DNA from: Bacteroides caecimuris
GTDB taxonomy: Bacteria > Bacteroidota > Bacteroidia > Bacteroidales > Bacteroidaceae
Reading direction: 5' to 3'
Assembly: GCF_001688725.2 (NCBI RefSeq)
Contig: NZ_CP015401.2
Span: 3,410,001 to 3,474,000, forward strand
DNA: 64,000 nucleotides
The notes beneath the pieces were generated by a model. The model saw nothing but the letters and a program-made list of their open reading frames with translations. It had not been told where the DNA came from and searched no databases. A program made the position numbers and the translations under genes. Shown piece after piece: positions 2,152 through 49,939 of the stretch (the first letter of the stretch is position 1; the number at the start of each line of letters is the position of its first letter).

Positions 2152-2193
2152 TAGACCGTTGTTTAGTACAAGTTAATTTTTTAGGTCGAGTAG

Positions 2194-2257
2194 GTCTGGG
2201 CATTTCAGCCCAAACTTCTCACAGAACCGTACGTGAAAGTCTCCCCTCATACGGCTC
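2194..2257 (-). ncRNA. Group II intron domains V and VI
   Basis: Domain V at 2224-2257 opens with GAGCCGTATGAGGGGAGACT and closes with ACGTACGGTTC, the hairpin that carries the catalytic core. Domain VI at 2194-2215 is a GTTTGGGC/GCCCAGAC hairpin that would hold the branch-point adenosine. Both strands of each stem are complementary, so these parts look undamaged. Confidence 0.75.
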
Positions 2258-2260
2258 CTC

Positions 2261-3371: not shown

Positions 3372-3956
3372 CCTAATAACATTAATCAATTAGTTGTACA
3401 AAATAAATACACCGGACAAGCTGCCCCCTTTGCTCCTTCGCCATTACAGCAATATCAACGCTACTACGAGACAGTCCGCCCCCTCCATAGGCATCGGTAC
3501 TCAAGCCTTACGGGTTTACCGTTTTTGGTCGCTCCCTTAGCATCCTATGGCGAGTTCCCGTGTTCCCACAACACAGCCTTCATACAGGTCATGCCACCTC
3601 TACGCCGGATGCCGTTCAGACTGTAAGCAGGTAACCTCTGAACTTGTCCCACACTCCTTGCATAAGCATGGGGGTGACATCACCCATTGCATTTCGACGC
3701 ATCATCAATGGTTCCCTTACGGTCATCTCCTGTACGGTCATCTGGCAGTTCATCACTGCCTTTTAAATGTATCGTTCACTACCTTAACCCTTTCGGGAGA
3801 AAGCAGCATACACCGGTTTGCAACCTCTTCCTGCAAAGCGATTGCGAGAGACCTACTCTCATCTGTATCGCAGTTACGAATGTGACAGCCATACCACATT
3901 CTCACGGCACACTGCAAGGTGCAAGTATATATCTATATATAGCTTGCACCTCGCAC

Positions 3957-20169: not shown

Positions 20170-20252
20170 ATTCACTGGTAGGGGTGCCTTAACATGACGG
20201 GCTGAGAACATACCCATAGAATCTGATCCGGGTAATGCCGGCGTAGAGAACT
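20170..20252 (+). promoter_or_regulatory. TPP riboswitch (THI element)
   Basis: The conserved thi-box elements occur in order: GGGGTGCC at 20181, CTGAGA at 20202, ACCC at 20212, and CTGATCCGGGTAATGCCGGC at 20223, followed by GTAGAGAACTA. It lies directly before the TonB receptor gene, 15 bases from the ATG. Binding of thiamine pyrophosphate should lower expression of the transport and salvage operon. With so little sequence before the ATG and no terminator hairpin, control of translation is more likely than transcription termination. Confidence 0.92.
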
Positions 20253-20266
20253 AATTAATAAGCAAG

Positions 20267-23763: not shown

Positions 23764-23806
23764 ACTACATTTAAACGGCAGACTTGTACCAAGCCATTGT
23801 CACAAC

Positions 23807-23870
23807 TGTGCCACCGTGTTGGCACAGCCGTGACACCTCAATGGCACAACCGTGCCAACACGGTGGCACA
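23807..23870. terminator. Long palindrome between convergent genes, likely bidirectional terminator
   Basis: Arms 23807-23825 and 23852-23870 are 19-bp perfect inverted repeats (GTGCCACCGTGTTGGCAC core), with a 26-bp loop that itself holds partial copies (CCGTGACACC, GGCACAACC). It lies between the stops of the kinase gene and thrC. There is no clear T run on either side. Confidence 0.6.
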
Positions 23871-23891
23871 AACTCATTCCTAAGAAGAAAA

Positions 23892-35582: not shown

Positions 35583-35867
35583 AGTTAATTTTATTTAGTG
35601 AATTAGTGAATAAGAATAATGGGTTGTAAATATAAGATAACCATGCAGTAAAGTATACGGTAGACGATTGCTTTTTATAAATTATTCACAAAGAATAGCC
35701 GGTCCTAATGGAATGAATGTGTCAAGCAGAATCAATGAATGCGTCAAACAGAATCGGAAACAAAAATCGGATGTGACGGAATAGAGCATACAACCGAAAT
35801 CCTAATAAATGAGGATTGCCCGTTTCTCTTATTTGCCGTTACTTTGCATCCGGTAAATGAACAACAA

Positions 35868-38315
35868 ATGAAGACAAAAAAGATTATGATTGCCCTCATG
35901 CTCCTGACAGCGGGGACAGCATGGGCGGAGAATTTCCCAAAAGACTCACTAAAAATAGTAGACATCGAAGAAGTGGTAGTGATTGCCACCCCGAAAGAGA
36001 ACCGTAAATTGCGTGATCTGCCGATGGCAGCCACTGTTTTATCGCAAGAGAACATGCGTGCCAATCAGGTGAACTCTGTGAAAAAACTGACAGGCATCGT
36101 CCCCAATCTGTTTATCCCCGATTATGGTTCCAAACTGACCACTTCCATTTATATCCGCGGAATCGGCTCACGCATCAACACCCCGTCCGTAGGACTTTAT
36201 GTAGACAATATCCCTTATATTGATAAATCTGCATTCGATTTTAACTATGCTGATATTGAACGTATCGACGTGCTTCGCGGGCCTCAAGCCACTCTCTACG
36301 GACGTAACACGATGGGCGGGCTTATCAAAGTGCATACCAAATCCCCCTTCACCTATCAGGGAACCGACATACGCATGGGAGCGGCAACCTACAATGACTA
36401 CAACATATCGTTGACCCACTATCACCGCCTGTCCGACCGTTTCGCATTCTCTACCGGTGGCTTTTACGAACACACGGGCGGTTTCTTTGAGAATTCGGCA
36501 CGCGACAATGAGAAGGTAGACAAAAGCAATGCCGGAGGCGGACGTTTCCGGGGTATCTATCTGCCGACATCCAATCTGAAAATAGGTCTGGCACTTAGTT
36601 ATGAATATAGCGATCAGGGTGGTTATCCTTATTATTACACCGGGATTACCCCCAGTGCGATAGCTAAAGCGAAAGAAAAGGGTAAAGAAATGACAGAAGA
36701 CCGGGCAGATTATATCGGTAAGATTTCGTATAATGACCGTAGCAGTTACCGCCGTGGGTTACTCAACACGGGTGTTAATATCGAATATCAAGCTCAAAAT
36801 TTTATATTAAGTGCTGTCACAGGGTATCAAAACTTGAACGACCGCATGTTTCTCGATCAGGATTTCACAGAAAAAGCAATCTATACACTGGAACAAAAAC
36901 AGAAGTCTAACACTATTTCTGAAGAAATTGTATTCAAATCGAAGGCAAATAAAAGATACCAATGGGCAACAGGAGTTTTCGGTTTATATCAAACATTGAA
37001 TACAAAAGGTCCTGTGACATTTTGGGAAGACGGGGTTAAAAATGTTATTGAAGGAAATGTAAACAACATTTTTGATGGCATGAAGCCTTCGGCTCCCAAA
37101 TTACACTTGGCTGTCAACAACCCTACATTATTGGTAGGCGGAGACTTCAGTACTCCTATTTGGAATGCGGGAGTTTTCCATCAATCGACATTGAATGACC
37201 TCTTTGTAAAAGGATTGTCTTTTACTATCGGCTTACGTTTGGATTACGAAAAGATGAGTATGAAGTATACTTCTGTGAGCGACCCCACCGATTTCAACTT
37301 CAGCATGAAAATGATGGCTCCTCCCCCAATGCCATCTATGTCGTTAGAAGCTAAAAATCTGCTCGCAAATGCTGGTTATGACGGGAAAATATCAGACGAT
37401 TATGTTCAGCTTCTCCCCAAATTCGCATTACAATATGAATGGGGAAAAAGAAACAATGTGTATGCAACCGTATCAAAAGGTTATCGTTCTGGCGGCTACA
37501 ACGTACAAATGTTTTCTGACCTTATCAGTGGAGATTTAAAAAACTCAATGATAGATGCCATAAAAGAGAGTGACGAGTTCTCCAAATTTGCTGCTATGAT
37601 TGACCAATATGTAGAGAAAGATGAAGTTCCTGAAGTAAAAGAAGCCACTCGCTATAAACCTGAATATTCATGGAACTATGAAGTAGGAAGCCATCTCACT
37701 CTTTGGGAAGGTAAACTTTGGGCAGACCTTTCCGCTTTCTACATGGATATGCATGACCAACAAATCTCTCAGTTCGCTGCAAGCGGTTTAGGACGTACAA
37801 CCCTTAATGCCGGAAAAAGTCGCAGCTATGGTGCAGAAGCCTCTCTCCGTGCCAACCTGACTAATAAACTAAGCCTGAACGTAAGCTACGGATATACTTA
37901 TGCTACCTTTACAGACTACGTTGAATATGAAAAGGATAAAGAGGGAAAACTTACTATAAAAGATGACTATAACGGCAAATACGTCCCTTTCGTTCCCAAA
38001 CACACCTTGAATATCGGTGGGGAATATGCCATCACTTGCAGCCCACGCTCCATATTCGACCGTGTAGTATTCCAAGCTAATTATAACGCTGCCGGACGCA
38101 TCTACTGGACAGAACAGAATGACGTAAGCCAATCTTTCTACGGAACATTGAACTGGAGAACGAATCTCGAAATCGGAGATGCCATGATTAGTTTTTGGGC
38201 ACGCAATTTCTTGAATAAGGACTACGCAGCTTTCTATTTTGAAACAATGAATAAAGGATTCATGCAGAAAGGACGTCCGATGCAGTTCGGGATAGACCTC
38301 CGATGCCGGTTCTAA
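35868..38315 (+). CDS. TonB-dependent outer-membrane receptor
   Basis: An 815-residue receptor: signal peptide ending AWAE near residue 20, a TonB-box-like IVDIEEVVVIATPKENR, a plug domain (YIRGIGSRINTPSVGLYVDN, IDVLRGPQATLYGRNTMGG) and a barrel ending FGIDLRCRF. It has no SusC-type N-terminal extension and no SusD partner, so it resembles siderophore, cobalamin or metal receptors more than glycan importers. The substrate is unknown. I use the ATG at 35868 because it opens a good signal peptide; upstream in-frame codons do not. Internal codon use around 36900-37700 is more A+T-rich than its ends. Confidence 0.85.
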   Translation: MKTKKIMIALMLLTAGTAWAENFPKDSLKIVDIEEVVVIATPKENRKLRDLPMAATVLSQENMRANQVNSVKKLTGIVPNLFIPDYGSKLTTSIYIRGIGSRINTPSVGLYVDNIPYIDKSAFDFNYADIERIDVLRGPQATLYGRNTMGGLIKVHTKSPFTYQGTDIRMGAATYNDYNISLTHYHRLSDRFAFSTGGFYEHTGGFFENSARDNEKVDKSNAGGGRFRGIYLPTSNLKIGLALSYEYSDQGGYPYYYTGITPSAIAKAKEKGKEMTEDRADYIGKISYNDRSSYRRGLLNTGVNIEYQAQNFILSAVTGYQNLNDRMFLDQDFTEKAIYTLEQKQKSNTISEEIVFKSKANKRYQWATGVFGLYQTLNTKGPVTFWEDGVKNVIEGNVNNIFDGMKPSAPKLHLAVNNPTLLVGGDFSTPIWNAGVFHQSTLNDLFVKGLSFTIGLRLDYEKMSMKYTSVSDPTDFNFSMKMMAPPPMPSMSLEAKNLLANAGYDGKISDDYVQLLPKFALQYEWGKRNNVYATVSKGYRSGGYNVQMFSDLISGDLKNSMIDAIKESDEFSKFAAMIDQYVEKDEVPEVKEATRYKPEYSWNYEVGSHLTLWEGKLWADLSAFYMDMHDQQISQFAASGLGRTTLNAGKSRSYGAEASLRANLTNKLSLNVSYGYTYATFTDYVEYEKDKEGKLTIKDDYNGKYVPFVPKHTLNIGGEYAITCSPRSIFDRVVFQANYNAAGRIYWTEQNDVSQSFYGTLNWRTNLEIGDAMISFWARNFLNKDYAAFYFETMNKGFMQKGRPMQFGIDLRCRF

Positions 38316-38427
38316 AATCCCTCAGCCCTCCACGAACATCATAGATGTGACTGCTGTTCATCGATTTCACCTGATTCTTGAAACACCGATAAATAAGGTG
38401 ATAACGGGTGAAAGCAAGGTATAAACA

Positions 38428-38459
38428 AAGGTGAAACCGTTCAATATCGGTTTCACCTT
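38428..38459 (+). terminator. Hairpin after the TonB receptor gene
   Basis: AAGGTGAAACCG (38428-38439) pairs perfectly with CGGTTTCACCTT (38448-38459) across an 8-nt loop, followed by ATTTCTC. It may be a weak terminator or part of the enclosing repeat element, whose GGTGAAA motif it shares. Confidence 0.5.
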
Positions 38460-38477
38460 ATTTCTCAAAATATCCCT

Positions 38478-38550
38478 TGAGCTAAAACAAATATCATTAT
38501 AGCTAATCCCGATATGCTTATAGCTAATCGGAATATGCTTATAGCAAATT
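38478..38550. repeat. 21-bp tandem degenerate repeats, sub-family A
   Basis: Units begin at 38478, 38499 and 38520 with a partial copy at 38541. The shared pattern is ATAGCTAATC followed by a few variable bases and ATATGCTT. The second and third full units differ at about three positions; the first is more diverged. Confidence 0.75.
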
Positions 38551-38750
38551 CACTGTCAGGTATTAATAGATAAACTGTCAGATATTAACAGTCTGGCCGT
38601 CAAGTATTAACTATCTGATGACAATATATTAATAGTTGAGTTACAGCATATATAGATTCAACACGTTGGACATATATAGCCAATACGTTGGAGCTATATA
38701 CCGGCCACATTGGATCTATATGCCCAACAACCGATATAAACAACTCCAAT
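38551..38750. repeat. 22-bp phased degenerate repeats, sub-families B and C
   Basis: Sub-family B: TATTAA recurs at 38561, 38583, 38605 and 38627, each 22 bp apart, preceded by CTGTCAG-like sequence. Sub-family C follows in the same phase: ACGTTGGA at 38663 and 38685 and ACATTGGA at 38707, each followed by a CTATATA-like stretch, with diverged units on either side (38641, 38729). The period is kept exactly while the sequence changes. Confidence 0.75.
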
Positions 38751-38912
38751 AGATGAAAGCGATAACAAGGGGCTTCACCTTATTTCACCCCACGCTTTCA
38801 CCCGTGACCTTCTTATTTACAAGGATTTCAGTTATAAGGTGAAATCGGTGGAACTTACGAATCAAAAGTTGATAGTACTTATACAAATCAGTAGGGAAAA
38901 ACAAATTCTCAT

Positions 38913-39422
38913 TCATTCCCGTACAACCATAGTCCGTATTTTCTGATAAGCAATACGCTCCGTACCATCCTTTACATAGATGATACCGCAACGCTGAAAC
39001 CCATGCTTCTCCAAGATATGCTGCATGACCTTATTATCCCGATGTGTATCCACCCGGACATTCGGCATCCGTTGAAAACACCAGTCCAGACAAGCTGCCG
39101 CCACCCCTTTCCTTGTGCCGTTCGTTGCCAACCGGTGCACTACCCCATAAGGTTCGTCATTCAACCATGCTCCCTCATAAATATGCTGATAAGTAGGGTC
39201 ATCACCCAATATAAAACAAAAAGTACCTGATATCACTCCTTGTTCATCCGCACAGACAAAGCTATGCCCCTCTTCAATCTCCTGACGAATCAATACTTCA
39301 GAAGGATAACCGTCAATCCATTGAGTAGTATTTCCGGTTGCACGCATAAAGGCACGGGCATAGTCATAAATCTCCATCACTAAAGGGAGATCTTTTATTT
39401 CGGTAGATCTGATTTCCATCAT
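38913..39422 (-). CDS. GNAT-family N-acetyltransferase
   Basis: A 169-residue GCN5-related acetyltransferase. The N-terminal strand-helix (IRSTEIKDLPLVMEIYDYAR), acetyl-CoA loop region (LATNGTRKGVAAACLDWCF, a variant of the usual R/QxxGxG/A) and C-terminal VRVDTHRDNKVMQHILEKHG with GFQRCGIIYV are in order. The acceptor is unknown. Transcribed alone on the minus strand; its 3' side faces the phased-repeat element. Confidence 0.85.
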   Translation of the reverse strand: MMEIRSTEIKDLPLVMEIYDYARAFMRATGNTTQWIDGYPSEVLIRQEIEEGHSFVCADEQGVISGTFCFILGDDPTYQHIYEGAWLNDEPYGVVHRLATNGTRKGVAAACLDWCFQRMPNVRVDTHRDNKVMQHILEKHGFQRCGIIYVKDGTERIAYQKIRTMVVRE

Positions 39423-49332: not shown

Positions 49333-49623
49333 TTTGTTTCCATCCGATGCCGTTCTTGGTTAAATGGGCTCAACCGCGCTGTAATTATGCTTCAATGCAG
49401 TCAACAATCACTGGCGGGAGAAAGTTTTCCGACAGGCGCCCCGTTCTGTTAACGGATGCAAACGCAATAGAAGAGAGTTTGTCCGCATTTTTAAAAACGT
49501 AACAAGCCACCCGTTGATTTACATCATTTAACAATCAAGCATCAAAATCCGCTTTATCATCGCTTCATGAAGCATTCATTTTCGTTTCTTCACGGATATT
49601 AAGTAAATATTTATTCAATTTTA

Positions 49624-49701
49624 GAACGAAGAGGGAACGAAGAGGAAACGAAGGGGATACGAAGGGGATACGGAGAAGTGACGAAAAAGCAGCGGAGAAG
49701 C
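49624..49701. repeat. 11-bp phased A/G-rich repeat, seven units
   Basis: CG dinucleotides fall at 49627, 49638, 49649, 49660, 49671, 49682 and 49693, exactly 11 bp apart. Units read like GAACGAAGAGG, AAACGAAGGGG and ATACGGAGAAG. Spacing is strict while the A/G bases vary. The phase breaks after 49701. Confidence 0.75.
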
Positions 49702-49939
49702 GAGGAAAAGACAAAAAAGCGGAATCTTCGGGAAGGCTCCGGAAGGAGCTTGTTTTTTCGTTTTTTTATCAGTCTGTTAACCAAGATTAAGCGTCCGGAG
49801 TGAACCGCCGAATGGAAAACCTTGGGGTTCGTATATGGTATGTCACTCTAAAGTAAATAAAGAATTTACACCCATGTAAATCATATATCAATCAGATTAC
49901 ACATCCGTCAAGTTCAATGTGGCAAGGTTCAGCATATAC

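What the first reader, a model, noticed from the sequence alone, without database searches (positions are those of the whole stretch)
38362..38847. Hidden 21/22-bp phased repeat array in three sub-families inside nested inverted repeats
Seen directly: about twelve consecutive units with period 21 (38478-38550) then exactly 22 bp (38551-38750). Sequence identity switches twice (ATAGCTAAT.. to CTGTCAG..TATTAA to ACGTTGGA..CTATATA) while the period stays. Two perfect inverted repeats (11 bp at 38362/38837, 12 bp at 38404/38794) and a 12-bp hairpin enclose the array. Keeping the period while changing sequence suggests that the period, two helical turns, is what matters: a bent or protein-wrapped DNA track, or a structured RNA built from modules. 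It is not CRISPR, since there are no constant repeats separated by unique spacers.
Basis: partly seen in the sequence, partly recalled or inferred. Interest (0 to 1): 0.75.

Follow-up and report, generated by a model that had tools for sequence, protein, structure and literature searches.

The report
Intergenic two-turn repeat arrays in Bacteroides
Between two genes of a gut Bacteroides lies a dispersed stretch of DNA whose sequence changes twice while a marker keeps recurring every 21-22 letters (two turns of the double helix), and similar arrays with unrelated sequences sit in about one in ten of the sampled gaps between its genes, which suggests rows of docking sites for a protein not yet identified.

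Summary
Twelve units run 38480-38719 at pitch 21, then 22 bp. Three four-unit families (A, B, C) follow one another without losing register, inside imperfect 100-bp inverted repeats. It is one of seven copies (one truncated) of a non-coding repeat in this genome. Copies also occur in B. acidifaciens, B. xylanisolvens, Bacteroides sp. GM023 and a B. finegoldii plasmid.

The period is a genome-wide property. In 20 evenly spaced stretches of the genome, 16 of 22 non-coding self-similarity runs between lags 12 and 40 fall at lags 20-23, in unrelated sequence families. Two more sampled Bacteroides genomes agree; E. coli gave none. Across 16 aligned copies, bases within 3 bp of the centres vary less than the rest (0.094 against 0.255). 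In another genome, 40 of 40 examined arrays hold four TGTACA-like centres exactly 22 bp apart, without an indel.

An RNA fold is not supported (no covariation, no strand bias). Best reading: phased DNA-binding sites for an unidentified protein, carried by a MITE-like repeat. Unit palindromy, significant in 14 of 29 arrays, is not significant for A, B or C. The nearest known element, BrickBuilt of P. gingivalis, differs in period and ends. Protein, function and spread are unknown.

The parts
38359..38458 (+). left arm of the imperfect inverted repeat, rich in GGTGAAA/TTTCACC motifs; includes the 12-bp hairpin 38428-38459
   Evidence: I1, I9; matched in the other copies
38470..38553 (+). array A, period 21, four units (first degenerate), centre TAGC
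   Evidence: limits approximate
38554..38641 (+). array B, period 22, four units, centre TTAA
   Evidence: limits approximate
38642..38733 (+). array C, period 22, four units, centre TATA-rich
   Evidence: limits approximate
38751..38850 (+). right arm of the imperfect inverted repeat
   Evidence: I1
23785..23876 (.). another member of the class: 22-bp array of TTGGCAC..GTGCCAA units between convergent genes
   Evidence: unit palindromy p 0.005; kept in G012 without gap columns, 88% identity; two further matches in the own genome
49259..49342 (.). another member of the class: 21-bp array of CCCGCAGGG units, not palindromic by test
   Evidence: palindromy p 0.79; the interval between aligned blocks in G012

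Best explanation
The feature is a dispersed, non-coding, MITE-like repeat of Bacteroides that carries three consecutive arrays of four DNA-binding sites each. The sites lie two helical turns apart on one face of the double helix and stay in one register although the site sequence changes from array to array. Shown: the pitch, the register, the dispersal, the conservation concentrated at the centres, and the genome-wide recurrence of the same pitch in unrelated families. Inferred: a DNA-binding protein, probably dimeric, occupies each site, and several units act together. Which protein, and whether it serves the chromosome (nucleoid structure, an insulator or buffer between genes) or the spread of the element (transposase or integrase sites), is open.
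For: Pitch and register: (A-to-B distance 21 in 14 of 16 copies). Periodic conservation: mean pairwise divergence within 3 bp of a centre 0.094 (72 sites) against 0.255 (189 sites), Mann-Whitney p 1.8e-8, with the contrast reversed when the register is shifted by half a unit. An independent A-B-C array in the same register without the inverted repeats: L049. Genome-wide pitch: 16 of 22 runs at lags 20-23 in 20 even stretches; dinucleotide shuffles of the same stretches plus window give about none. TGTACA family of G003: 40 of 40 examined loci have a chain of four centres at exactly 22 bp (39 with all four exact), 0 gap cells, 1 substitution in 960 core bases against 251 in 1920 spacer bases; in 200 kb of G003 sampled without regard to the motif, all 13 neighbouring TGTACA pairs within 60 bp are 22 apart. 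Unit palindromy beyond a column-permutation control in 14 of 29 arrays, Fisher 2.6e-12. No RNA-type signal.
Against: No protein is identified. A, B and C of this window are not individually significantly palindromic (p 0.31, 0.34, 0.14), and 15 of 29 arrays tested are not. The best register for conservation is 1 bp off my centres. Between orthologous loci only 1 of 15 array differences lies within 3 bp of a centre, but the test is marginal (P 0.053). In the TGTACA family the contrast is largely subfamily-level: singletons alone give 1 of 960 against 10 of 1920, p 0.11, so selection in place is not proven there. The 40 TGTACA loci are the scored part of 86 candidates and so lean to similar copies. 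Both strands fold far better than shuffles (z -7.8 and -7.0), which a hairpin model would also predict. Arrays show no common gene theme and no promoter-side preference. 29 Fisher p-values include four copies of one family (TGTACA) and repeated families, so that combined p is not from independent arrays.
Confidence: 0.45

Rival explanations
1. Selfish MITE with an embedded minisatellite, like BrickBuilt: the inverted repeats are mobilised by some transposase, and the 22-bp units are a passenger tandem repeat that grows and shrinks by slippage, without a binding function.
For: Seven dispersed copies; copies differ by whole units; a non-homologous element of the same build (142-bp arms 93% alike, 22-bp array) at the locus where G000 carries a copy; precedent in P. 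gingivalis (PMC4596501, sections 5, 7 part 1, 8 and 13 read).
Against: Slippage does not explain one pitch shared by unrelated families, nor the register across A, B and C. Clear flanking inverted repeats were found for only 3 of 36 arrays. No target-site duplication or clean empty site was found. Conservation is periodic.
Confidence: 0.3
2. Recognition array for the element's own mobility: the units are transposase or integrase binding sites needed in cis for transposition.
For: High copy number of TGTACA quartets (40 examined loci) with near-invariant cores; inverted-repeat arms also carry repeated motifs at about 10-12 bp (read).
Against: The one Y1_Tnp (RAYT-like) gene of the genome has no array beside it. 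No transposase with these ends was seen, but short ends were not searched for specifically. Arrays of many families in one genome would need many enzymes.
Confidence: 0.14
3. Structured RNA, terminator or mRNA-end stabiliser: the transcribed inverted repeats and units act as hairpins.
For: Very stable predicted folds on both strands; a terminator-like hairpin at 38428-38459, 1 found against 0.3 expected in shuffles; 4 of the 7 own-genome copies lie between convergent genes.
Against: Covariation term -0.06 (15 of 119 pairs have a two-sided change); GU 27 against AC 24 in strand-neutral stem pairs; Rfam finds no family. The plus-strand fold alone shows GU 159 against AC 48, but that fold selects for GU.
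Confidence: 0.08
4. A mutational bias that makes tandem duplications of about 22 bp (two turns), without any function.
For: One pitch in unrelated families.
Against: Coding DNA of the same sample shows no peak at 21 (3 runs in 417 kb, 18 and 24 having 4 each). Arrays are mostly old and degenerate rather than fresh exact duplications. Whole quartets disperse as units.
Confidence: 0.03

Closest known systems
BrickBuilt MITE of Porphyromonas gingivalis (Klein et al. 2015, PMC4596501; abstract and sections 5, 7 part 1, 8, 13 read)
   Same: Non-coding, dispersed, strictly intergenic element of a Bacteroidales genome with imperfect tandem repeats of about two helical turns between flanking segments that end in inverted repeats; repeat number varies between copies.
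   Different: BrickBuilt has one 23-nt repeat family and short IS5-type ends (GAGACCTTTGCA). Here there are three families in one register with periods 21 and 22, 100-bp inverted repeats without that end, and unrelated families with the same pitch elsewhere in the genome.
MITEs in general (review PMC10969869, passages seen)
   Same: Short, AT-rich, intergenic, multicopy, inverted repeats, no gene.
   Different: Inverted repeats are 100 bp and only 71% complementary, against about 4-30 bp in the review; no target-site duplication or partner transposase established.
REP/BIME palindromic repeats (recalled, no call)
   Same: Dispersed intergenic palindromic units, often near gene ends.
   Different: No fixed two-turn pitch; no Y1 transposase gene adjoins an array here.
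Iteron arrays of plasmid origins (recalled, no call)
   Same: Tandem protein-binding repeats of about 17-22 bp in helical phase.
   Different: Here many dispersed chromosomal arrays of different sequence, without a neighbouring replication gene at this locus (TonB-dependent receptor and GNAT acetyltransferase).

Membership tests
MITE | short non-coding element in several copies at different sites | tested here: met
   seven places in the own genome; no gene-length ORF inside
MITE | terminal inverted repeats | tested here: met
   38359-38458 / 38751-38850, 71% complementary; longer and less perfect than usual
MITE | target-site duplication | tested here: inconclusive
   flank comparison of orthologous sites gave no clean empty site
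MITE | ends matching an autonomous transposase | tested here: inconclusive
   whole-element BLAST shows the arms only in copies and fragments; short ends not searched separately
BrickBuilt | 23-nt tandem repeat | tested here: not met
   periods 21 and 22
BrickBuilt | IS5-type ends GAGACCTTTGCA | tested here: not met
   two matches with 2 mismatches in the window, neither near the element; 4.7 expected
CRISPR array | constant repeats separated by unique spacers | tested here: not met
   uninterrupted degenerate units
structured RNA | compensatory base changes | tested here: not met
   covariation term -0.06; no strand bias of wobbles
REP/RAYT system | cognate Y1 transposase beside repeats | tested here: not met
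   one PF01797 gene, no array within its 3.3-kb locus
Lrp/AsnC operator array (octamer wrap) | array beside the regulator's own gene | tested here: not met
   three PF01037 genes, best score 17 of 30 in their flanks; autoregulation is recalled, so this weakens rather than excludes
protein-bound operator array | occupancy by a protein | not testable with these tools
   needs experiment

The most novel reading that the evidence does not exclude
Bacteroides genomes carry a class of intergenic elements defined by geometry rather than sequence: short rows, often four, of binding sites exactly two helical turns apart, in many sequence families, each read by its own member of an unknown family of DNA-wrapping or DNA-lining proteins. 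Such rows may shape chromosome topology or insulate neighbouring genes.
Probability: 0.3. Interest if true: 0.85.

Novelty: new variant of a known kind. Interest (0 to 1): 0.6.

Why it matters
If the reading holds, 13 of 122 sampled intergenic regions of at least 100 bp in this genome carry a phased array with no known role. A fixed pitch with free sequence is what an architectural protein would leave behind, and the main such proteins of Bacteroides are poorly known (recalled). The arrays give ready probes for fishing the protein out, and they offer an explanation for a share of intergenic DNA that annotation leaves blank.

Tried and rejected
RAYT/REP link: one Y1_Tnp gene, no array beside it. 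Lrp/AsnC octamer wrap: I liked it because four dimers on about 88 bp would fit, but no array adjoins any of the three AsnC genes. Structured RNA. A-tract bending. Flanking inverted repeats as a general feature: only 3 of 36 arrays, the window element being counted in two rows. Empty sites: no clean one. At the L056 site G012 holds a gene for an SGNH-like hydrolase (named from its sequence, not by a family search), and at the L053 site G021 holds an unrelated element of the same build. Gene theme of TGTACA arrays: none evident from a list of neighbours, which were not searched against families. Context: of 30 fetched rows of that family (29 distinct loci) 11 convergent, 14 tandem, 5 divergent. 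Neighbouring genes of this element: a TonB-dependent receptor and a GNAT acetyltransferase, nothing telling. Literature: eight searches of a partial open library showed no report of a genome-wide 22-bp pitch in Bacteroides; that is no proof that none exists.

Full report
What is there. The region 38359-38850 lies between a TonB-dependent receptor gene (35739-38315, +) and a GNAT acetyltransferase gene (38913-39422, -), which converge on it. Two imperfectly complementary arms of 100 nt (71%) enclose twelve tandem units. The first four (A) have period 21, the next eight (B, C) period 22. In each array stretch 0 of 300 dinucleotide shuffles reached the observed lag signal. The centres of the units run in one register through both changes of sequence family: 21 bp from the last A centre to the first B centre, 22 bp from the last B centre to the first C centre (the first C centre is placed by alignment with other copies and the first A centre is read by eye).

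It is a dispersed element. BLAST of the region against the own genome finds six copies over the full length and one truncated copy beside transposase-like genes. Among 40 relatives searched with it, four more genomes match: G009 and G012 with full copies, G021 with one nearly full copy, and G001 only with array pieces. A scan of named genomes with a 37-base pattern found 13 stretches in Bacteroides acidifaciens DSM 15896, Bacteroides sp. GM023, B. xylanisolvens XB1A and an uncultured Bacteroides. Contig lengths and positions show that G009 is that B. acidifaciens record and G012 that GM023 record (inference). A B. finegoldii plasmid record carries a full copy at 76% identity; three phage-like records match in part. 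Copies differ by whole units: 21 bp in A or 22 bp in C. Among 16 aligned copies the A-to-B distance is 21 in 14. The exceptions are a copy with a 38-bp insertion (L061) and a degenerate one (L072).

Conservation follows the register. In the 16-copy alignment the mean pairwise divergence within 3 bp of a centre is 0.094 (72 sites), and farther away it is 0.255 (189 sites; p 1.8e-8). Shifting the register by half a unit turns the contrast round. The strongest contrast is at a shift of 1 bp, so my centres may be off by a base. In B and C the profile has further low points about 7 bp on either side of the centre. At the same locus in GM023 (G012) the element is 93.5% identical over 492 sites with no gap column. 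Coding sequence there averages 86.5%, and seven other intergenic segments average 88.2% with 61.5 gap columns per kb; one of those seven reaches 92.4% with 2 gap columns, so the element is well conserved but no extreme case. Of 15 differences in the array 1 lies within 3 bp of a centre, which is marginal (P 0.053). In B. acidifaciens the element is identical over 501 bp while the end of the receptor gene is only 73.6% alike, a sign of recombination.

The pitch is genome-wide. I sampled 20 evenly spaced 20-kb stretches of the genome and counted runs of self-similarity (21 of 30 bases) in DNA outside ORFs. Sixteen of 22 runs between lags 12 and 40 fall at lags 20-23. With the window added it is 22 of 28, and five shuffles give about none. 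Evenly sampled stretches of two more genomes of the genus show the same (G021 8 of 13, G003 7 of 11), and the stretch of G012 syntenic to the window, not an unbiased sample, 3 of 4. Outside the genus the picture is mixed: G026 2, G027 1, G032 1, G031 0 and G039 0 runs in samples of 60-120 kb from the same order; 12 and 1 in two genomes of the same class (G042, G072); 0 in two of the same phylum; 0 in 200 kb of E. coli K-12. In G042 several arrays share the unit GTCATTGCGAGG, which I recall as a widespread bacterial repeat. Thirteen of 122 intergenic regions of 100 bp or more in the even sample carry an array. The families differ in sequence. Coding DNA shows no peak. My ORF calling is mechanical, so 'non-coding' is approximate.

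A second family makes the geometry plain. In G003 the array search turned up TTCTTYTGTACARAAGAA units. BLAST scored 40 of 86 first-look candidates. I fetched all 40 distinct loci: all 40 have four centres at exactly 22 bp, 39 with all four TGTACA exact, and there are no gap cells. The cores have 1 substitution in 960 bases, the spacers 251 in 1920. Most spacer differences are shared by several copies; counting singletons alone the contrast is 1 of 960 against 10 of 1920 (p 0.11), so selection in place is suggested, not proven. In the 200 kb of G003 sampled without regard to the motif, the 13 neighbouring TGTACA pairs within 60 bp are all 22 apart.

Units are often palindromic, but not here. 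Against permutation of the unit's columns, 14 of 29 testable arrays (7 short ones of 36 were dropped) are palindromic at p<0.05. The window's A, B and C are not, taken singly (p 0.31, 0.34, 0.14). That weakens the step from 'phased' to 'dimer sites' for this element in particular.

RNA or DNA? Both strands fold much better than shuffles, as any long inverted repeat must. The consensus fold of 16 copies has a covariation term of -0.06 kcal/mol, with 15 of 119 pairs changed on both sides somewhere. In pairs of the inverted-repeat stem that both strand folds share, plus-strand wobbles (27) and minus-strand wobbles (24) are equally common. Rfam has nothing. I take the signal to be at the DNA level.

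Build without sequence. At the place where the own genome carries the copy L053, G021 carries another element: arms of 142 bp, 93% alike, around a 22-bp array, with no meaningful similarity to the window element. A further composite (22-21-22) lies in L081 and, inverted, in L088. Yet only 3 of 36 arrays have clear flanking inverted repeats, so the array rather than the inverted-repeat element is the common unit.

Explanation and doubts. A phased row of DNA-binding sites accounts for one pitch in many sequences, for the register across families and for conservation at the centres. Slippage within a passenger minisatellite accounts for whole-unit changes but not for those three. I could not name the protein: arrays do not adjoin the three AsnC/Lrp genes or the single Y1 transposase gene. 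Mobility is inferred from dispersal alone; no target-site duplication or clean empty site was found.

Known relatives. BrickBuilt of P. gingivalis (PMC4596501; abstract and sections 5, 7 part 1, 8 and 13 read) is the nearest: intergenic, 23-nt repeats, inverted-repeat ends of IS5 type, 19 places in one strain. That paper also mentions 41-, 23- and 22-nt repeats in strain W83 from an earlier report which I have not seen. The element here fails the period and the ends of BrickBuilt. Two other papers were seen in passages only (PMC5771137; PMC10969869). Eight literature searches gave no report of a genome-wide pitch.

Noticed in passing
window 49620-49722: Purine-rich repeat (ACGAAGGGGAT) with an 11-bp period that also shows at lag 22, not palindromic (p 0.27).
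   Followed up: partly
window 2185-2259 and 3740-3860, - strand; 20170-20266, + strand: Rfam matches to group II introns (two pieces) and a TPP riboswitch.
   Followed up: no
L021 (G009) against window 36960-38315: Receptor gene only 73.6% alike while the neighbouring element and acetyltransferase gene are identical: a recombination breakpoint near 38100.
   Followed up: partly
L042:2260-2600 (G000:2840760-2841100): Array A units between GGTGAAA/TTTCACC-type sequences: an E-A-E build without B and C.
   Followed up: no
L045:2363-2575: Another 22-bp family (AACAGAGCCTCTGTT) running in front of C-type units.
   Followed up: no
L081:15486-15766 and L088:10547-10744: A second three-array composite (periods 22, 21, 22), present twice in opposite orientation; the outer arrays are inverted copies of each other.
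   Followed up: partly
G042 samples L228, L229, L231: A same-class genome with an even higher density of 20-23-bp arrays, several with the unit GTCATTGCGAGG.
   Followed up: no
G000:1922114-1922452 (L123): The only Y1_Tnp (RAYT-like) gene of the genome sits overlapping between two co-directional genes, as if domesticated.
   Followed up: no
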